Shown here: one piece after another, positions 40,543-47,969 of the stretch
How positions within the stretch are numbered: the first letter of the stretch is position 1
Layout: every line of letters begins with the position of its first letter
Source of the DNA: Micromonospora parathelypteridis
Lineage (GTDB): Bacteria; Actinomycetota; Actinomycetes; Mycobacteriales; Micromonosporaceae
Length of the DNA stretch: 64,000 nt
Assembly (NCBI RefSeq): GCF_014201145.1
Contig: NZ_JACHDP010000001.1
Coordinates: 6,262,001 to 6,326,000 of the forward strand
Direction of reading: 5' to 3'
Notes under the pieces: model-generated
Told to the model about the DNA's origin: nothing
Database searches by the model: none
Seen by the model: only the letters and a program-made list of their open reading frames with translations
Position numbers and translations under genes: made by a program

Positions 40543-40950
40543 TCAGGTGGCGAGGTTCAGCTCGGCGAGGAGCTTCTCCACCCGGCCCCGGATCTCGTCG
40601 CGGATCGGGCGGACGGACTCGACGCCCTTGCCGGCGGGGTCGTCCAGCTTCCAGTCCTCGTAGCGCTTCCCGGGAAAGACCGGGCAGGCGTCACCGCAGC
40701 CCATCGTCACGATGACGTCGGAGGACTCCGTGGTCGCGTACTCCAGGAGCTTGGGGGTCTGGTCGGTGATGTCGATGCCGACCTCCCGCATGGCTTGCAC
40801 GGCCGCGGGGTTGACCGTCTCGGCCGGCGCGGAGCCGGCCGAGCGGACCTCGACGGCGTTGCCGGCGAGGTGGCGTAGCCAGCCGGCGGCCATCTGGGAA
40901 CGGCCGGCGTTGTGGACGCAGACGAACAGGACGCTGGGCTTGTCGATCAT
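40543..40950 (-). CDS. arsC: Arsenate reductase, low-molecular-weight phosphatase fold
   Basis: A 135-residue enzyme reducing arsenate to arsenite. The P-loop is CVHNAGRS (Cys11 to Ser18), followed by VTMGCGDACPVFPGKRYEDW with Cys85 and Cys89 of the redox relay and the general-acid Asp in KLDDP. This is the thioredoxin- or mycothiol-linked type, unrelated to the glutaredoxin ArsC of E. coli. The ATG at 40948-40950 has AAAGG some 12 bases upstream. It lies 52 bp downstream of arsR on the same strand. No arsenite pump follows. Confidence 0.92.
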   Translation of the reverse strand: MIDKPSVLFVCVHNAGRSQMAAGWLRHLAGNAVEVRSAGSAPAETVNPAAVQAMREVGIDITDQTPKLLEYATTESSDVIVTMGCGDACPVFPGKRYEDWKLDDPAGKGVESVRPIRDEIRGRVEKLLAELNLAT

Positions 40951-41002
40951 GACGCGGTCGCCTTTCCGGGGCAGGCGGGTACGGGGTGCGTGGGGGTGAA
41001 GC

Positions 41003-41356
41003 TCAGGCGTCGGGTGCCGGTGCGGCCGTGAGCAGTGCGGCGAGCTGGCGCAGGATGGCCGGCCGGGCGCGGTAGTAGACCCAGGTGCCTCGGCGCTCGG
41101 CGTCGACGAGCCCCGCTTCACGCAGCGTCCTGAGGTGGTGCGAGATGGTCGGGCCGGTCAGGTCGAACGCGGGGGTCAGATCGCAGACGCAGATCTCCCC
41201 GCTCTCGGCGGAGGCGATCATCGACATCAGTTGCAGCCGCACCGGGTCGCCGAGGGCCTTGAACGCGGGCGCGAGCACCGTGGCGGCCTCGGCCGGCATG
41301 CGCCGCTCGGTCAGCGAGGGGCAGCAGGACACGTCCGGCGGCGATTGATTAGACAT
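41003..41356 (-). CDS. arsR: ArsR-type arsenite-responsive repressor
   Basis: A 117-residue winged-helix metalloregulator. The DNA-binding part is DLTGPTISHHLRTLREAGLV, followed by a RRGTWVYY wing. Cysteines occur as a vicinal pair Cys11-Cys12 near the N-terminus and as ICVCDL (Cys56, Cys58), which combines features of the Corynebacterium-type and classic ArsR arsenite sites. The ATG at 41354-41356 has no clear ribosome-binding site. A dyad (TGATTAGA / TCTAATCA) spans its start, suggesting autoregulation and control of the divergent acetyltransferase gene. Confidence 0.92.
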   Translation of the reverse strand: MSNQSPPDVSCCPSLTERRMPAEAATVLAPAFKALGDPVRLQLMSMIASAESGEICVCDLTPAFDLTGPTISHHLRTLREAGLVDAERRGTWVYYRARPAILRQLAALLTAAPAPDA

Positions 41357-41383
41357 TTCTCTAGGTTGACACCTATCTAATCA
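41346..41383. promoter_or_regulatory. Likely ArsR operator/promoter dyad
   Basis: TGATTAGA (41346-41353) and TCTAATCA (41376-41383) form an 8-bp inverted repeat with a 22-bp spacer overlapping the arsR start codon. The spacer contains TTGACA-like bases (41367-41372). AT-rich for this genome. Confidence 0.55.
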
Positions 41384-41461
41384 GTGTGCAACTGTCTGAT
41401 TCGACAGACGTCAAGACAGGCGGCGTCGCGTACCTGCGTCCTGCGGAAACGGAGCCTGCTG

Positions 41462-41959
41462 ATGGCCGACCACACCGTGCGCCCGATGGGCGCCGCCGAC
41501 GCCGAGCGGGTCCTGGAGATCTACCAGGCCGGTCTGGACGCCGGCAATGCCAGCTTCGAGATCACCGCGCCAACCTGGGCGGCGTTCGACGCGGCGCGGC
41601 TGAGCGCGCACCGCTTCGTGGCTGCCGACCGCGACGGCAGCGTCCTCGGCTGGATCGCCGTCTCGCCGACCTCGACCCGCGCGGTGTACGCCGGTGTGGT
41701 CGAACACTCCGTCTACGTGGACCCGGCCGCCCAGGGTCGTGGCGTCGCCCGGTTGCTGCTCGACGCGCTGATCGCCTCGACCGAGGCGGCCGGCATCTGG
41801 ACGATCCAGTCCGGGATCTTCCCGGAGAACACCGCCAGCCTGACGCTGCACCAACGGGCCGGGTTCCGCGTCATCGGCGTACGCGAGCGGGTCGGTCGCC
41901 ACCACGACCGGTGGCGCGACGTAGTCCTGCTGGAACGCCGCAGCCCCAACCTCACCTGA
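41462..41959 (+). CDS. arsN1: GNAT N-acetyltransferase, ArsN1-like
   Basis: A 165-residue GNAT enzyme of the phosphinothricin-acetyltransferase group. Visible are VLEIYQAGLDAGNASFEI, VYVDPAAQGRGVARLLLDAL (acetyl-CoA loop Q/R-G-x-G) and NTASLTLHQRAGFRVIGVRE. Members located in ars loci acetylate arsinothricin or methylarsenite-derived antibiotics; the divergent arsR and nearby arsC support that reading over glufosinate resistance. The ATG at 41462 has CGGAG upstream. The FAD oxidoreductase gene follows by 45 bp, probably in one transcript. Confidence 0.8.
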   Translation: MADHTVRPMGAADAERVLEIYQAGLDAGNASFEITAPTWAAFDAARLSAHRFVAADRDGSVLGWIAVSPTSTRAVYAGVVEHSVYVDPAAQGRGVARLLLDALIASTEAAGIWTIQSGIFPENTASLTLHQRAGFRVIGVRERVGRHHDRWRDVVLLERRSPNLT

Positions 41960-42004
41960 CGAGGCCCGCCCGGCAGGCGGACCACCACATCGAGGAGTCA
42001 CCGG

Positions 42005-43288
42005 ATGAACGCCCTGGACACCCTTCCCGTCGTGATCATCGGCGCCGGCCCGACCGGTCTCGCCGCGGCCGCGCACCTGCACGAGCGCGGCCTGACCTTC
42101 ACCGTCCTCGAAGCCGGCGACACCCCGGGCGCCGCTGTCCGCCAGTGGGGGCACGTGCGCGTCTTCTCACCGTGGCGTTTCAACATCGACCCGGCCGCCC
42201 GTCGGCTCCTCGACGACGCCGGCTGGGTGGCCCCCGACCCGGAGGGCCTGCCGACCGGCGCGGAGCTGGTTGGCGACTACCTCCAACCCCTCGCGGAGCT
42301 GCCGCAGCTCAAGCCGCACGTGCGGTACGGGGCGCGCGTCGAGGCGATCAGCCGCCTCGGCCTCGACCGGCTGCGCACCGCCGGACGCGACACCGCACCC
42401 TTCCTGCTCCGCCTCGCCGACGGCGACGAACTGTTCGCCCGAGCCGTCATCGACGCCTCCGGCACCTGGCGTACGCCGAACGTCCTCGGTGCCTCCGGCC
42501 TGCCCGCGCGGGGTGAGGCGGACGCGACGGCGTACCTGGAGCACGCGCTGCCGGACGTGCTCGGTGTCGACCGGGACCGGTTCGACGGCCGGCACACCCT
42601 GGTCGTGGGCGCCGGCCACTCGGCCGCGAACACGCTGCTGTCCCTGGCGGAACTGGCTGGATCCACACCGGGTACCGAGGTGACCTGGGCGATCCGGACA
42701 GCCTCGCCGGCGCGTACCTACGGCGGCGCGGACGCCGACACTCTGCCCGCCCGCGGCGCCCTGGGCGCGCGGCTGCGTGCGCACGTCGACGCCGGACGGA
42801 TCCGGCTGCTCACCGGGTTCGCCGTGCATACCCTCGCCCCGGTCGACGGCCGGGTACGCGTCGTCGTGCGGCACGCCAACGGCACCGACGAGTCGATCAC
42901 CGTCGACCGGATCGTCGCTGCCACCGGCTTCCGCCCCGACCATTCCATCGCCGCCGAGCTGCGTCTGGACCTGGACCCGGTCCTGGGCGCCACCCGCGCT
43001 CTGGCCCCGCTGATCGACCCCAACGAGCACTCCTGTGGCACCGTTGCGCCGCACGGCGTGGACGAACTCGCCCACCCGGAGACCGGCTACTACGCCGTCG
43101 GCATGAAGGCCTATGGTCGGGCGCCGACGTTCCTCATGGCCACCGGCTACGAGCAGGTCCGCTCCGTCGTCGCCGCCCTCGCCGGGGAATGGGTGGCCGC
43201 TCGTGACGTCCAACTCGACCTGCCCGCGACCGGCGTCTGCAACAGCAACCCGGCCGGCGATCAGCTTGGCGGCTGTTGCACCAGCTGA
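42005..43288 (+). CDS. FAD/NAD(P)-dependent oxidoreductase of the arsenic locus
   Basis: A 427-residue flavoprotein. The FAD-binding Rossmann motif is VVIIGAGPTGLAAAAHL at 9-25, the NADPH motif LVVGAGHSAANTLLSL near 199, and ATGFRPDHS marks the third conserved region, as in flavin monooxygenases. Unusual is the C-terminal tail GVCNSN...LGGCCTS with three cysteines. Flavoproteins of this sort (ArsO-like) recur in actinomycete ars operons, where they may oxidise organoarsenicals; the exact reaction is not established from sequence. The ATG at 42005 has GAGGAG. It is the second gene of the unit begun by the acetyltransferase. Confidence 0.8.
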   Translation: MNALDTLPVVIIGAGPTGLAAAAHLHERGLTFTVLEAGDTPGAAVRQWGHVRVFSPWRFNIDPAARRLLDDAGWVAPDPEGLPTGAELVGDYLQPLAELPQLKPHVRYGARVEAISRLGLDRLRTAGRDTAPFLLRLADGDELFARAVIDASGTWRTPNVLGASGLPARGEADATAYLEHALPDVLGVDRDRFDGRHTLVVGAGHSAANTLLSLAELAGSTPGTEVTWAIRTASPARTYGGADADTLPARGALGARLRAHVDAGRIRLLTGFAVHTLAPVDGRVRVVVRHANGTDESITVDRIVAATGFRPDHSIAAELRLDLDPVLGATRALAPLIDPNEHSCGTVAPHGVDELAHPETGYYAVGMKAYGRAPTFLMATGYEQVRSVVAALAGEWVAARDVQLDLPATGVCNSNPAGDQLGGCCTS

Positions 43289-43338: not shown

Positions 43339-43692
43339 TCACCGTCGGCTGGCGCAGGCGACGCACGTACGCGCCGACGGGCGGGCGACGAGTCGCTCGG
43401 TGGGAATCGGACGGGAGCACCGCTCGCACACGCCGTAGCTGCCGTCGTCGACCCGTCGCAACGCGACGTCCAGCTCGGCCAGGCGTTGGCGGGCCGCGTC
43501 CAGGACGGCGGTGAGCTGTGCGCGTTCGAAGGCGATCGTGCTGCCCTCGGGGTCGTGTTCGTCATCGGCGTTGGACGACCGGGATGCCTCGAAGAGGCTC
43601 CGTAGGTCGCCGTCGAGGGCGGTGGCCTGAGTCTCGGTCTGCTCGCGCAGCCGCAGCAGCTCCTGGCGGATCGCGCTGGAATCCCGGTTCAT
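43339..43692 (-). CDS. TraR/DksA-type zinc-finger protein
   Basis: A 117-residue protein with a coiled-coil helical front (IRQELLRLREQTETQATALD, then ERAQLTAVLDAARQRLAELD) and a C-terminal four-cysteine zinc finger CERC...CVAC (YGVCERCSRPIPTERLVARP), the DksA/TraR pattern. DksA-like proteins insert into the RNA polymerase secondary channel; many actinomycete members are of unknown role. The ATG at 43690-43692 has GGTGGAAC upstream. It follows the diiron gene by 22 bp, so it is probably the last gene of that unit. Confidence 0.87.
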   Translation of the reverse strand: MNRDSSAIRQELLRLREQTETQATALDGDLRSLFEASRSSNADDEHDPEGSTIAFERAQLTAVLDAARQRLAELDVALRRVDDGSYGVCERCSRPIPTERLVARPSARTCVACASRR

Positions 43693-43714
43693 GGCCGTTC
43701 CACCGTACAGCTCC

Positions 43715-44932
43715 CTACATGAAGTTGCGGGTGTGCAGGGCGGAGAGCGCGGCGGCCTCGTCGGGGCGGAAACCCAGCCGTACCAGTCGGCGTTGGCGGC
43801 CCTGATCCATCGCGTGTTGCAGAGCCTGCACCCGGTCGAAGCCGGTGGACACGTCGTCGGGATGCCAGCCACCCGCCGCGAGCACCACCAGCGCGTCGAA
43901 GACGTCCGCGTTGAGGCCCGCGGTGTCGGCGAGCGCGTCGTGGCGGCGGTGGATCGCCGCCCGCAGCCGATCCCGCAGCCGCGGGTCGAGCTGCGCCTGA
44001 TGCTCCAGGTGCGCCATGCCGAACACCACGTGCCGGCGCTCGTCCTGCATGGCGAGCCAACAGACTCGGCGGGTCACCGGGTCCGGGGCATTCTGGTGCA
44101 GGAACGACAGCAGATCGACGAAGCTGCCCTCGCCGAGCACGGAGAGCAGGAACGAGGCCAGCGCGAAGTCGGACTCCGCGACGAGCGTGAAGAGCGACTG
44201 CCGGCCGCCGGCCGACGACGTGCCCAGCTCGGCGCCCCGCAGCAGCGCACGCCGGTTGAACACCTCCATGTGCCGCGCCTCGTCGGCCATCTGCACGGCG
44301 AGAAGCTGCACCACCTCACGGAAGTGCGGGTGGATGCGCCCCACGAACCGGGCCGGTACGACGAGCGCGGCCTGCTCGTTCTCGACCAGGTAGGTCATCA
44401 CCTGCACCACCGCGGCCTCGACATCGGCCGGCAGCGCGAACGGATCGTCCCACGGCACCGCGGTCTGCGGATCCCACTGTCGTGCGGCCGCCTGGGCGTA
44501 CAGGTGCGGGGCGACGTCGGCCCACACCAGGTCGCGGTCGTCCAGGTCGAACCGGGCCTCGGGACCACCGGCTTCGAGCAGCGCCCCCCGGGCGCCGAGC
44601 CCCCACCGCGCCGGTGGGCGGCTGCTGAGTGCCGACGGAAGGGCGGGCCCGGCCCGCTCCGCGCCGAACCAGCGGTCGTCATCCGCCGTACCCCGGACGA
44701 CGACGGCCACCAGGTCGCTCCGGTCGCCCAGGTCCGGCCATTCGACCCGATGCCCCCGGCCACGACACCAGGCGGGCAGGTGCACGGGCAGCGCCGGGTC
44801 ACGCCCGGAGACCGCCACCCGGCCTCCGGGCGGCAGCCCGGCCAGAGCGCGCTGTACGAGTAGATGCGCTCCCCGGCCGAAGCCCAGGTCGCCGAGGTGG
44901 ACCTCGACGTCGGCGGCCGGGGCCGTGCTCAC
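43715..44932 (-). CDS. TusA-like domain fused to a ferritin-like diiron protein
   Basis: A 405-residue cytosolic protein. Residues about 8-65 resemble a TusA/SirA sulfur-carrier fold (VEVHLGDLGFGRGAHLLVQR, then VSGRDPALPVHLPAWCRGRG), but the canonical Cys-Pro at the active site is absent (GRGAH instead). From about 165 a four-helix ferritin-like domain carries plausible diiron ligands: Glu186 region, Glu218/His221 (EARH), Glu268 region and Glu298/His301 (ERRH). The GTG start overlaps the stop of the PhnD-like gene by four bases. I know no described enzyme with this combination; context suggests an oxidative step with the flavoprotein of the same unit. Confidence 0.75.
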   Translation of the reverse strand: MSTAPAADVEVHLGDLGFGRGAHLLVQRALAGLPPGGRVAVSGRDPALPVHLPAWCRGRGHRVEWPDLGDRSDLVAVVVRGTADDDRWFGAERAGPALPSALSSRPPARWGLGARGALLEAGGPEARFDLDDRDLVWADVAPHLYAQAAARQWDPQTAVPWDDPFALPADVEAAVVQVMTYLVENEQAALVVPARFVGRIHPHFREVVQLLAVQMADEARHMEVFNRRALLRGAELGTSSAGGRQSLFTLVAESDFALASFLLSVLGEGSFVDLLSFLHQNAPDPVTRRVCWLAMQDERRHVVFGMAHLEHQAQLDPRLRDRLRAAIHRRHDALADTAGLNADVFDALVVLAAGGWHPDDVSTGFDRVQALQHAMDQGRQRRLVRLGFRPDEAAALSALHTRNFM

Positions 44933-45774
44933 GGCCGATAGTCCGTGGCCGTCACCCGCCCGTCAGGCGAGAAGAACCCGGCGGCGTCGACCGCCCTGGC
45001 GAGAAGGTCGTACCCCGAGGTGCGGCCGTCCTTCCAGGCCGTCAGCCCCTCCAGGTCGAGCAGCGGGCGCACCTGCGGATCGGCGTACGACATGCCGAGC
45101 AGCAGCGTCCCGAAGAGCTGGACCCCGGCGGACTCCGGCTCCCGGACCGTCATGTTGCAGTGGTCGTACCGGGCGGTCTGCGCGATGATCCGGGTGCCCT
45201 CGGGTGGCAGCGTGCCCTCCTGGACGAACGCCAGGTGGTTGGCATCGATCATGCAGGCGGCGTCCACCTCACCGGCCACCAGGGCGCGGGCCGCGTCCCG
45301 CTCGCCGCCGATGTGGTCGCCGTGCAGGCCGACACCGACGTCGAACCGCCGCACGTCGACCTCGACTCCGGCGGCGTCGAGGTGACCCAGCGGAATCAGC
45401 GTCGCCTGTGGACTGTCGACCGCGCCGACGGCGACCACCATCCCCGCGAGGTCCGCGACCTGCCGCACCGGCGAGTCGGCGCGGACCACCACGATCGAGG
45501 TGAGGTCCTGGTCGGTGTCGCGCATCGTGAGCGCGCGGACGGCCGTGCCGTTGGCAGCCGCCAGCCGCTCGGCCCGTAGCCAGGCCAGGGGCGAGTTCCA
45601 CGCGGCGTCGATCCGCCCGGCGACAAGATCCTCGACCTGTCGCTCGTAGTGCGAGTAGAGGACGAAGTCGAAGTCCAGGCCTCGCCCGCGCAGCCAGGCG
45701 CGGAAGCCCTCCCAGATGGTCACCACCTTGGGGTCGTACGCGACTGCGCCCATCAGGACGGTTGGCGCCGACAT
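44929..45774 (-). CDS. PhnD-like substrate-binding-fold protein without signal peptide
   Basis: A 281-residue protein of the phosphonate/phosphite-type binding protein fold (MGAVAYDPKVVTIWEGFRAW, ERQVEDLVAGRIDAAWNSPL, SPVRQVADLAGMVVAVG, GLHGDHIGGERDAARALVAG). Such proteins are normally exported receptors, but this one begins directly with the first beta strand and has neither signal peptide nor lipobox, so it should be cytosolic. Its ATG overlaps the stop of the acyl-CoA-dehydrogenase-like gene by one base and its stop overlaps the diiron gene. The fold has been recruited for enzymes such as the desulfinase DszB and for cofactor synthesis (THI5); an enzymatic or ligand-delivery role is inferred. 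Confidence 0.75.
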   Translation of the reverse strand: MSAPTVLMGAVAYDPKVVTIWEGFRAWLRGRGLDFDFVLYSHYERQVEDLVAGRIDAAWNSPLAWLRAERLAAANGTAVRALTMRDTDQDLTSIVVVRADSPVRQVADLAGMVVAVGAVDSPQATLIPLGHLDAAGVEVDVRRFDVGVGLHGDHIGGERDAARALVAGEVDAACMIDANHLAFVQEGTLPPEGTRIIAQTARYDHCNMTVREPESAGVQLFGTLLLGMSYADPQVRPLLDLEGLTAWKDGRTSGYDLLARAVDAAGFFSPDGRVTATDYRP

Positions 45775-46943
45775 CAGCGATTGGCCTCGTCGAGCAGCGG
45801 CAGCCCGGTGGCGACCCGGCCGACGAAGTCGTGCAGGGCGTCGGTGGTCGGCGCCATCACCCGAGCGGCGCGCGAGTCGCGGAAACGGCGCTCAAGGCCC
45901 AGCTCCTTGCGGAACGCGCTGCCACCGCAGAGCTGCATCGCGCCATCGGTGACGTCGGCGGCCGTCTCGCCGGCGAGCGCCTTGACCTGCAGCACCCGCA
46001 ACATCGCGTCGTCGCGGCCCGTCTCCAGCGCGGTGAGGGTGTCGCCCAGGAAGGCGCGCAGCGCGTCGGTGCGGATCATCAGGCGGGCGAGGTCGCGTCG
46101 GGTGACCGGCGCGTCGCGAAGGGCGGCCCCGGTGTGCGTGAGCGTCGTCCCGGTGAGGTGCCGGTTGGCCTCGGCGACCGCGCTGTCGGCGAGACCGAGA
46201 CAGAACGCGCCGTTGAGCACCAGGAACCAGGGGAGGACCGCGCCGAGCGCGGTGTCGAGCCCGGCGCCGTCGTCCGCGAGCATTGCCGCCGACGGGACCC
46301 GGATCCCCTCGCCGGTCATCGGCCGGGAGCCGTTGCCACGCAGGCCGAGCCCGTCGAAGTCACCGGTCACGCTCAGACCGGCGCTGCCGGCCGGCACGTG
46401 CCACAGCGTCATCGGACCGGCGTCGCCGGACAGCGGGAGGCTCGACCAGACGTAGCTGTCGGCCTCGCCGGCCGAGGTGACCCAGCTCTTGCGGGCGTCG
46501 AGGCGGACGCTGCCGTCGTCGGCGGCGCTCGCGGTGCCGGTCGGCGACCAGAAGTGGCTGCGCGAGCCGTACTCGGAGAAGGCCAGCGTGGTGAGATGAC
46601 CGCCGGTGGCGATGGCCGTGCGGACCTCGCGCGGGCCGTGGGCCTCGATGACGGCGGTCGCCGCGTAGTGCATGAGCACCACCATCGCCGTGGACCCACA
46701 CTCGGCGGCCAGCCGCTCGATGACCTCGGCGACCGCCCGCATGCCCTGGCCGCCGCCGCCGACCTCGGTCGAGGAGGCCAGGCCGAGCAGGCCAGCCGCG
46801 GCGAGGGCGTCGACACCCTGGCGAGGGAAGGCACCCTCCCGGTCGACGATCGCGGCCTGCGGGCGGATCACATCGTCGATGACCGTGCCGAGCCTGTCGG
46901 CGGGATCGGTGTCGGATTGGGCAGTGTCGACACTGGTCGTCAT
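45774..46943 (-). CDS. Acyl-CoA-dehydrogenase-fold flavoprotein
   Basis: A 389-residue protein with the three-part ACAD fold: N-terminal helices (GVDALAAAGLLGLAS, EVGGGGQGM), a middle beta domain (LTTLAFSEYGSRSHFWSPTG, LDARKSWVTSAGEADSYVW, LGLRGNGSRPM) and a C-terminal helical bundle (MQLCGGSAFRKELGLERRFRDSRAARVMAPT). The C-terminal Gly-rich ending lacks a clear catalytic Glu-Arg motif of true dehydrogenases, so it may belong with ACAD-fold monooxygenases such as DszC or SfnB. The ATG at 46941-46943 has AAGGGA. It follows the channel gene by 12 bp and is coupled to the PhnD-like gene. Confidence 0.82.
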   Translation of the reverse strand: MTTSVDTAQSDTDPADRLGTVIDDVIRPQAAIVDREGAFPRQGVDALAAAGLLGLASSTEVGGGGQGMRAVAEVIERLAAECGSTAMVVLMHYAATAVIEAHGPREVRTAIATGGHLTTLAFSEYGSRSHFWSPTGTASAADDGSVRLDARKSWVTSAGEADSYVWSSLPLSGDAGPMTLWHVPAGSAGLSVTGDFDGLGLRGNGSRPMTGEGIRVPSAAMLADDGAGLDTALGAVLPWFLVLNGAFCLGLADSAVAEANRHLTGTTLTHTGAALRDAPVTRRDLARLMIRTDALRAFLGDTLTALETGRDDAMLRVLQVKALAGETAADVTDGAMQLCGGSAFRKELGLERRFRDSRAARVMAPTTDALHDFVGRVATGLPLLDEANR

Positions 46944-46955
46944 GCCGGTGTCCCT

Positions 46956-47969
46956 TCAGCCAGACTGGGTGGGACCGCCGTCGACACTATCCGAATTGGA
47001 GGACGCCACGCGAGCGTCGGATAACCGTCTGGTACGGGCGCCGTCCCGGTGGGGCCGTCCGTGCCCGTCGTCCCGGTCGATCCGCAGCTCCCGCTCCAAC
47101 TCGGCGATGACCGCGCGCAGGTCGTCCAGCCGCTGGGTGAGCGCGATGCGGTCCACCTCGTCCGGTACGCCGTCGCCGTCCTCGTCGTAGTCGGGAGCCA
47201 GTCTCTCGGTCATCTCCAACCGACGTGCCTCCTCCATCGAGTTGACGATGACCGCGATGAGGATGTTGAGCAGCAGGTTGACGGTGACGATCACGTAGCT
47301 GACGTAGTAGAGCAGCGTCCACGGCGAGATCTCCATGCCCTGCTCGATGAGGTCCGGCAGCGTCTCCAGCGACAGCAGCACGAACAACGTCAGCAGGGAT
47401 CGGCCGATGTCGCCGTACTGTTCCGGATACCGGCTGCCGAAGATCAGCCAGCCGGCCATGCCGTACACGTAGAGCGTCACCACCGCCAGGGCGAGGAAAC
47501 CGGTGACGCCCGGCAGGCTGCGCCACAGCGCGGAGACGATGGTCCGCAGGCCCGGCGAGAACCGCACCAACCGCACCATGCGGGCGACCCGTACGACGCG
47601 GAGTAGCGCTGGGTCGCCGTGCAGGCCCGGTATGAAGATCGCCGCGATCACCACGAAGTCGAAGACGTTCCAGCCGTGCCGGAAGAAGTCCTGCGGACGC
47701 TTGCCGTAGGCCGCCAGCCGGACGCCGATCTCGACGACGAAGACGGCCCGGAAGAACAGCTCCAGCCAGTGCAGTGCCGTGCCCGCCCGGATCAGGCCGT
47801 CGTACGTCTCCAGGCCGAGGACGACGCCGTTGGCGAGGATCACCACGACGATGACGACCTCGAACGGGCGCGACCCGGCGAACCGGGCGCAGCGGTCAGC
47901 CCAACCGGATCGGTGCCGCGCGGGCGGCGCCGGCCCACCTCGCTGGGCGGGCACGGGGGCGGCGGGCAT
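46956..47969 (-). CDS. Voltage-gated cation channel, NaChBac-like, with EF-hand loop
   Basis: A 337-residue six-helix channel subunit forming tetramers. S1-S4 span about 35-145; S4 carries arginines at every third position (Arg124, 127, 130, 133, 136). The pore helix and filter read TLFVLLSLETLPDL (Glu202 as the filter carboxylate), against LESWAS in NaChBac, so selectivity may differ. After S6 (VIVTVNLLLNILIAVIVNSM) a canonical 12-residue EF-hand loop occurs at Asp260-Glu271 (DYDEDGDGVPDE), followed by a C-terminal coiled coil. The ATG at 47967-47969 is preferred to a TTG eight codons earlier. It lies 12 bp upstream of the flavoprotein gene on the same strand. Confidence 0.88.
   Translation of the reverse strand: MPAAPVPAQRGGPAPPARHRSGWADRCARFAGSRPFEVVIVVVILANGVVLGLETYDGLIRAGTALHWLELFFRAVFVVEIGVRLAAYGKRPQDFFRHGWNVFDFVVIAAIFIPGLHGDPALLRVVRVARMVRLVRFSPGLRTIVSALWRSLPGVTGFLALAVVTLYVYGMAGWLIFGSRYPEQYGDIGRSLLTLFVLLSLETLPDLIEQGMEISPWTLLYYVSYVIVTVNLLLNILIAVIVNSMEEARRLEMTERLAPDYDEDGDGVPDEVDRIALTQRLDDLRAVIAELERELRIDRDDGHGRPHRDGARTRRLSDARVASSNSDSVDGGPTQSG

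What the first reader, a model, noticed from the sequence alone, without database searches (positions are those of the whole stretch)
43339..47969. Five-gene unit joining an EF-hand cation channel, ACAD-fold flavoprotein, cytosolic PhnD-like protein, TusA-diiron fusion and DksA-like protein
The genes run in one direction with gaps of 12 bp, then overlaps of 1 and 4 bp, then 22 bp. This tight coupling implies shared function. The ACAD-fold protein and a signal-less binding-fold protein recall DszC and DszB of sulfur removal, and the TusA-like domain also recalls sulfur chemistry; the ferritin-like diiron domain could perform a second oxidation. I know of no described pathway with this set. The sulfur link is inference; the packing is seen.
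Basis: partly seen in the sequence, partly recalled or inferred. Interest (0 to 1): 0.75.

Follow-up and report, generated by a model that had tools for sequence, protein, structure and literature searches.

The report
Selenium-linked three-gene oxidative cassette
Three tightly packed genes of unknown function in a soil actinomycete form a unit found in many bacteria, almost always where the selenium enzyme SelD is present and often right beside selenium genes, so they probably handle selenium, not sulfur, in a way not yet described.

Summary
The five genes and their spacing are real (gaps 12, -1, -4, 22 bp), but they are not one unit. The three central genes (ACAD-fold flavoprotein, signal-less PhnD/PtxB-fold protein, TusA-like/diiron fusion) are a conserved, overlapping cassette: same order and strand in 70 of 80 loci from other genomes, in many actinobacterial genera and two Chloroflexota MAGs. 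Channel and DksA-like genes lie near it only in Micromonospora. The cassette is linked to selenium. SelD is in 48 of 49 searched genomes that carry it, and 14 more loci hold SelD themselves, against 85 of 296 genomes of the class. Neighbours include SelB, tRNA-Sec, SelD, selenocysteine formate dehydrogenase, or SenA/SenB: 17 of 64 loci against 0 of 40 random stretches. In one genome selD heads the cassette as an apparent operon (L113). The sulfur reading is weakened: the TusA domain lacks its cysteine and the folds nearest the binding protein bind phosphite and arsenic oxyanions. Function is inferred: most likely oxidative handling of a selenium compound feeding SelD; a new SelD-dependent product is the main rival.

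The parts
45774..46943 (-). Core gene 1: acyl-CoA-dehydrogenase-fold flavoprotein (389 aa), sister of the Rv1679/FadE16 family; canonical catalytic Glu replaced by Ala (VMAPT, A364)
   Evidence: (NF049984 375.4 bits, cut-off 600)
44929..45774 (-). Core gene 2: signal-less PhnD/PtxB-fold oxyanion-binding-like protein (281 aa) with near-invariant HGDH and DHC motifs; sister of the Rv1680 family
   Evidence: (NF049985 210.1 bits, cut-off 400)
43715..44932 (-). Core gene 3: TusA-like domain without catalytic Cys fused to a ferritin-like diiron domain (405 aa; motifs E184/E186, E218xxH221, E268, E298xxH301)
46956..47969 (-). Flanking gene, not part of the conserved cassette: ion channel (337 aa), 12 bp upstream of the core; near the cassette only in Micromonospora loci
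43339..43692 (-). Flanking gene, not part of the conserved cassette: DksA/TraR-type zinc-finger protein (117 aa), 22 bp downstream; near the cassette only in Micromonospora loci and not always adjacent there

Best explanation
The three central genes are one operon-like selenium-metabolism cassette. Shown: they are co-conserved and overlap, they occur almost always in genomes with SelD, and they often lie beside selenocysteine or selenoneine genes. Inferred: the flavoprotein and the diiron domain oxidise a small selenium compound (for instance an organic selenide or a seleninate), the cytosolic PtxB-like protein holds or hands over the small oxyanion-like selenium species, and the released selenium is passed towards selenide and SelD for selenophosphate. 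The Cys-less TusA-like domain would be a docking or binding module, not a sulfurtransferase. My confidence in the selenium link is about 0.9; in supply to SelD as the direction about 0.4. The figure below is for the whole statement.
Against: No enzymatic or ligand evidence. One genome (L080, G691) has an apparently intact cassette and no SelD match. In the window's own genome selD is 1.5 Mb and selB 0.56 Mb away. In Micromonospora SelD is over cut-off in 36 of 37 genomes, so the genus gives no test. The 80 loci are the best 80 of 292; the other 212 were not examined. 47 of 64 loci show no selenium gene nearby at the thresholds. No transporter is consistently next to the cassette (MFS 6 and ABC 4 of 140 neighbours). 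Supply and use of selenophosphate predict the same co-occurrence. Seven loci have the binding and diiron genes without a detectable ACAD and two have the diiron gene alone.
Confidence: 0.5

Rival explanations
1. SelD-dependent biosynthesis: the cassette consumes selenophosphate, which the PtxB-like protein binds (a phosphorus oxyanion with one non-oxygen substituent, like the ligands of its phosphite and phosphonate relatives), and the flavoprotein and diiron enzyme build or tailor an unknown selenium metabolite or cofactor.
For: SelD present almost always; selD heads the cassette in L113, reminiscent of sen clusters; fold match to phosphite/phosphonate binders; accessory distribution (12 of 295). 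PMC9814287 (whole text seen) quotes the selenoneine author that other selenium pathways are likely.
Against: No cassette genome was shown to have SelD without any other use: selenocysteine machinery lies near SelD in 45 of 56 regions fetched (one of the 56, L196, holds no SelD and a few genomes are in twice), so no orphan-SelD case is proven. No C-Se bond-forming type of enzyme is evident.
Confidence: 0.3
2. Selenium homeostasis or detoxification: the cassette oxidises excess selenide or methylated selenium made by cells that handle selenium.
For: Two oxidising enzyme folds; SelD association as above.
Against: Selenium toxicity is not limited to SelD genomes (general knowledge), so a detoxification cassette should also be frequent without SelD; among the genomes checked one intact case was seen (L080).
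Confidence: 0.12
3. Sulfur pathway like DszC/DszB with TusA sulfur transfer.
For: ACAD-fold relatives include sulfur enzymes SfnB (84.5 bits, cut-off 430.9) and 3-sulfinopropanoyl-CoA desulfinase (88.1 bits, cut-off 600), both far below cut-off.
Against: TusA cysteine absent (0 of 88 rows); DszC 55.9 of 850 bits; binding protein nearest PtxB/HtxB/PhnD/arsenic binders; association is with SelD, SelB, SenA/B.
Confidence: 0.04
4. The association with SelD reflects relatedness of the sampled genomes or lifestyle, with no functional link.
For: Genomes are related and the sets overlap (G392 and L052, G552 and L059 give identical SelD coordinates).
Against: Holds in 23 named genera (record titles, listed) and Chloroflexota MAGs, within one genus (10 of 12 against 43 of 283), and physically (17 of 64 against 0 of 40); the cassette is decayed in G416, which lacks SelD.
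Confidence: 0.04

Closest known systems
Rv1678-Rv1681 module of mycobacteria (NCBIfam NF049984 ACAD, NF049985 SBP-like, NF049973 radical SAM, NF049986 membrane protein)
   Same: ACAD and SBP-like genes adjacent and homologous (46-47% and 37-40% identity in L137-L140); same loss of the catalytic Glu (VMAPT, 4 of 4).
   Different: A radical SAM protein follows instead of the TusA-diiron fusion (called in L137-L139, named in L137 and L138), and no diiron homolog was found in the four loci; SBP motifs CHC and HGDT instead of DHC and HGDH; window proteins score below both family cut-offs. No paper on Rv1679/Rv1680 function was seen in the listings.
Selenoneine cluster senA-senB-senC(selD)
   Same: Small gene set tied to SelD; lies beside the cassette or the diiron gene in Actinomadura, Amycolatopsis and MAG loci.
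   Different: Different protein families; SenA is over cut-off in 0 of 24 genomes checked, 22 of them with the diiron gene, the window's own included.
Selenocysteine locus with Sec formate dehydrogenase (selB, tRNA-Sec, selD, fdh)
   Same: The cassette sits within or beside it in Mycobacterium, Mycolicibacterium and several Streptomyces loci.
   Different: The cassette genes are not among the known Sec machinery and are missing from most SelD genomes (43 of 53 in one genus).
PtxB/HtxB/PhnD and ArrX/AioX oxyanion-binding proteins
   Different: Those are exported binding proteins (general knowledge); this one starts its first strand at residue 5 and has no permease or ATPase among the five genes.
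AurF / VlmB / aldehyde-deformylating oxygenase diiron enzymes
   Different: N-terminal TusA-like fusion; substrate unknown.

Membership tests
TusA sulfurtransferase | Catalytic Cys of the CPxP motif | tested here: not met
   No Cys at P0002 positions 16-26 in 0 of 88 locus rows; in the 36-homolog alignment one row (P0024) has a Cys at position 16, not at the aligned site. Motif recalled.
TusA sulfurtransferase | TusA fold | tested here: met
Acyl-CoA dehydrogenase (canonical) | Catalytic Glu in the YEGT position | tested here: not met
   Aligned residue is Ala in the window protein and in 81 of 81 cassette rows with that column. That some dehydrogenases carry the base elsewhere is recalled, not tested.
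Rv1679 / Rv1680 families (NF049984, NF049985) | Curated score cut-offs 600 and 400 bits | tested here: not met
   375.4 and 210.1 bits: sister subfamilies.
DszC / DszB | DszC cut-off 850 bits | tested here: not met
   55.9 bits.
DszC / DszB | DszB as nearest structure of the binding-fold protein | tested here: inconclusive
   DszB not in the 50 rows shown; PtxB ranks first.
ABC-transporter substrate-binding protein | Export signal and partner permease/ATPase | tested here: not met
   First strand at residues 5-11; no permease or ATPase among the five genes. No signal-peptide program was run.
AurF N-oxygenase | Pfam AurF cut-off 29.6 bits | tested here: not met
   25.1 bits; many homologs carry PF11583 in the precomputed column.
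Carboxylate-bridged diiron protein | Paired ExxH motifs with further Glu | tested here: met
   E184/E186, E218xxH221, E268, E298xxH301; 94-95 of 95 rows. Metal binding itself not tested.
Selenoneine (sen) cluster | SenA with SelD | tested here: not met
   Own genome SenA best 342.4 bits, cut-off 420. SenB was not searched in the own genome.
SelD-linked selenium gene set | Occurrence mainly in SelD genomes and physical linkage to selenium genes | tested here: met
   48 of 49, 10 of 12, 17 of 64 against 0 of 40; exception L080.

The most novel reading that the evidence does not exclude
The cassette is a further SelD-dependent selenium trait besides selenocysteine, selenouridine, the labile Se cofactor and selenoneine: a cytosolic PtxB-fold protein binds selenophosphate or a selenium oxyanion, and a flavin enzyme plus a TusA-diiron enzyme make or release an unknown selenium compound; in some lineages its mRNA carries a SECIS-like GGUC-loop hairpin through which SelB could sense selenocysteine status.
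Probability: 0.3. Interest if true: 0.9.

Novelty: categorically new. Interest (0 to 1): 0.8.

Why it matters
Few selenium-specific genes are known, and how aerobic soil bacteria obtain or spend selenium beyond SelD is open. A compact three-gene cassette, spread over many actinobacterial genera and almost always accompanied by SelD, gives a directly testable entry: delete it, feed defined selenium sources, look for a lost selenoprotein activity or a lost selenium metabolite. It also gives a context for the unstudied paralogous Rv1679-Rv1680 pair, and a candidate case of a PBP-fold protein that works in the cytosol.

Tried and rejected
Five-gene operon: rejected; channel and DksA-like are Micromonospora-only neighbours among the 80 loci. 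Sulfur desulfurisation: rejected as leading reading. Plasmid-borne spread: no match in 72,556 plasmid records. Known RNA near the cassette: in the 10 loci scanned (7, 6, 3 in both) only tRNAs, tRNA-Sec included, reached Rfam thresholds. Common palindromic operator upstream of the cassette in all lineages: not found; best 6-mer palindrome in 3 of 53. GGUC hairpin as a selD regulon element: the conserved form was not found beside selD in the 11 matching regions, nor upstream of the window's own cassette. Transporter partner: no recurrent one (140 of 330 chosen neighbours scanned). Structure of the diiron domain: model too weak (mean pLDDT 64.3), so its active site was not modelled. Literature: 'Rv1680/Rv1679/Rv1681' gave 0 papers with two terms; with one of four terms 326 papers, 40 listed, nearly all by chance words in 'moex', Rv1681 in four and FadE16 in one of the listed (listing); Rv1680 in none of the 10 listed of 2,388. 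TusA/AurF/ACAD terms gave 0. Selenium searches were seen as listings; term searches within PMC5322559, PMC9312934, PMC13188914 and PMC5029168 (passages) found none of acyl-CoA dehydrogenase, phosphonate, TusA or ferritin. Subscription papers, the selenoneine paper of 2022 among them, were not seen.
Full report
The observation. The window (G000:C1:6262001-6326000; its diiron protein is 97-98% identical to that of Micromonospora arborensis) holds five minus-strand ORFs at 43339-47969 with gaps of 12, -1, -4 and 22 bp. Pfam confirms ion channel, ACAD domains, phosphonate-binding fold and DksA-type zinc finger; the diiron (AurF) and TusA matches are below cut-off. No EF-hand was listed.

Which genes belong together. 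A profile of 36 homologs of the TusA-diiron protein found 292 encoding stretches in GTDB species genomes; the best 80 were fetched with up to 10 kb on each side. By tblastn, ACAD, binding protein and diiron protein occur in that order on one strand in 70 of 80; ACAD is missing in 10 and the binding protein in 3 (L053, where the contig ends, counts in both) and a few matches are partial or in two pieces, for example L040, L072, L093, L101. Junctions are mostly -4 or -1 bp (some gaps there are distorted by my simple start choice). The channel is near in 13 and the DksA-like gene in 15 loci, all Micromonospora; in 7 of those 15 the DksA-like gene is about 1.2 kb off. Within the own genus the cassette is patchy: 7 of 37 genomes have a strong diiron match.

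Selenium in the neighbourhood. Clustering of the neighbours showed no fourth constant gene, but recurrent ones whose representatives NCBIfam names SelD (392.8 bits, cut-off 125), SelB (274.3; 242.25), SenA (472.9; 420), SenB (323; 300) and actinobacterial formate dehydrogenase (1500.6; 1400); tRNA-Sec was found by Rfam and ARAGORN. With fixed thresholds, 17 of 64 cassette loci outside the close Micromonospora group hold a selenium gene, against 0 of 40 random 20 kb stretches (two per contig from 20 cassette-bearing genomes, one pair overlapping; the contigs were those whose length I knew because they hold SelD or the cassette, which if anything favours the control). The other 47 of 64 show none at these thresholds. 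In L113 (G553) selD, ACAD, binding protein and diiron gene follow each other with gaps of 36, 55 and -23 bp, and selB lies about 1.2 kb beyond.

Selenium across genomes. In 296 genomes of the class SelD is over cut-off in 85 and the cassette protein (over 490 bits) in 5, all 5 with SelD; a sixth, distant match in G104 (32% identity) has neither SelD over cut-off nor the binding protein. In 295 genomes of the genus of G309, SelD is in 53 and the cassette protein in 12; 10 of the 12 have SelD, 7 of them within 14 kb of it. The two exceptions are G538 (81% complete, match at 103-405 only, no binding-protein match) and G416, where ACAD and binding-protein genes are broken and the diiron match begins at residue 33-43. 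For 50 further cassette loci whose SelD status was open, 49 genomes could be searched and 48 have SelD; 14 others show SelD inside the locus. The exception, L080 (Saccharothrix algeriensis), has an apparently intact cassette and a PhnCDE-like transporter about 4-6 kb away. Fisher tests give p = 0.002 (class), 8e-7 (genus), 5e-28 (62 of 63 loci against class) without correction for relatedness, and the sets overlap in part. In the window's genus SelD is over cut-off in 36 of 37 genomes, so it cannot test the link. The own genome has SelD at 4.81 Mb and SelB with tRNA-Sec and part of a formate dehydrogenase gene at 6.86-6.87 Mb.

Relation to Rv1678-Rv1681. NCBIfam has families for Rv1678, Rv1679, Rv1680 and Rv1681. 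In 4 of 40 genomes of one genus of the same order the Rv1680-like family is over cut-off; there ACAD and SBP stand side by side, in three of the four loci followed by an ORF of 332-333 aa that is a radical SAM protein of the Rv1681 family in the two that I scanned, with no diiron homolog. The cassette is thus a sister module with a different third enzyme.

A leader hairpin. In 10 loci (four Pseudonocardia, two Actinomycetospora, three MAGs and one Chloroflexota MAG) a 7-bp hairpin with loop GGTC stands about 73-120 bp before the ACAD start, in the sense orientation; GGTC is the commonest tetraloop of hairpins of 6 bp or more there (11 of 62 sequences, next 3). On 7 distinct rows all 49 cells pair and 3 pairs change on both sides (the element was picked as a hairpin, which favours it). 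A looser search finds such hairpins upstream in 13 of 80 sequences, against 0 of 80 antisense and 21 of 400 random 400-bp control pieces, so the loose count alone is only about threefold; the point is the conserved form. The Sec codon of formate dehydrogenase in the loci examined is followed by hairpins with GGTCT or AGTCT loops (of the 10 hairpin genomes only that of L077 is among them, as L143), so the leader resembles a SECIS. That SelB represses selAB in E. coli through a SECIS-like leader is recalled; only the citation of Thanbichler and Boeck 2002 was seen. The element is absent in the window and upstream of the Streptomyces cassettes, and the conserved form was not found beside selD, so it is a lead only.

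Mechanism. Two oxidising enzymes and a cytosolic oxyanion-type binding protein, found almost only where SelD exists but missing from most SelD genomes, fit an accessory route that releases selenium from a particular compound and feeds SelD. A product-forming route that uses selenophosphate fits nearly as well. The data do not separate them; I rank supply first because the cassette stands beside two different users of selenium (Sec and selenoneine). A modest count of luciferase-like monooxygenases among the neighbours (5 of 140) would suit release of selenium from organic compounds, but has no control.

Novelty. Four papers on selenium genes in prokaryotes were searched by term (PMC5322559, PMC9312934, PMC13188914, PMC5029168; passages only). 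PMC5322559 names YedE, YedF, a LysR-type regulator and DUF3343, not these proteins. PMC5029168 lists actinobacteria with orphan SelD and speaks of a novel and unknown SelD-related use (passage). I found no description of the cassette; subscription literature was not available. I rate it categorically new as a selenium-linked gene set, with its biochemical role unproven.

Noticed in passing
window 40543-43288: An arsenic-resistance-like group (arsenate-reductase-like, ArsR-like, acetyltransferase and flavin-monooxygenase-like ORFs, judged by eye from the translations) ends about 50 bp from the DksA-like gene.
   Followed up: no
L058 7915, L061 7898, L063 4541, L064 7883, L066 7896, L068 7834, L077 7848, L081 7876, L089 3545, L092 7876 (18 bases each, +): Conserved GGUC-loop hairpin in the leader of the cassette, SECIS-like, with changes on both sides of three pairs.
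   Followed up: partly
G679, G684, G692, G702, G687 and G058: SelD genes with one in-frame TGA, possibly selenocysteine-containing SelD.
   Followed up: no
L112 (G416): Decayed cassette (ACAD and binding-protein genes broken, diiron match short at its N-terminus) in a genome without SelD.
   Followed up: yes
L055, L059, L065, L067, L071, L078, L093: Binding-protein and diiron genes without a detectable ACAD gene beside them.
   Followed up: partly
L084, L103: Diiron gene beside SenA genes, without ACAD and binding protein.
   Followed up: partly
L127 9531-11858 (own genome, 1.4 kb after selD): FxsB-type radical SAM peptide maturase near selD.
   Followed up: no
G029, G030, G016: Short pieces of the diiron gene at 49-98% identity in Micromonospora genomes without a full match, perhaps remnants or contig ends.
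   Followed up: no
L137-L140: Rv1679-Rv1680 type ACAD-SBP pair; a radical SAM protein of the Rv1681 family follows in L137 and L138, with an Rv1678-type membrane protein in L137.
   Followed up: partly
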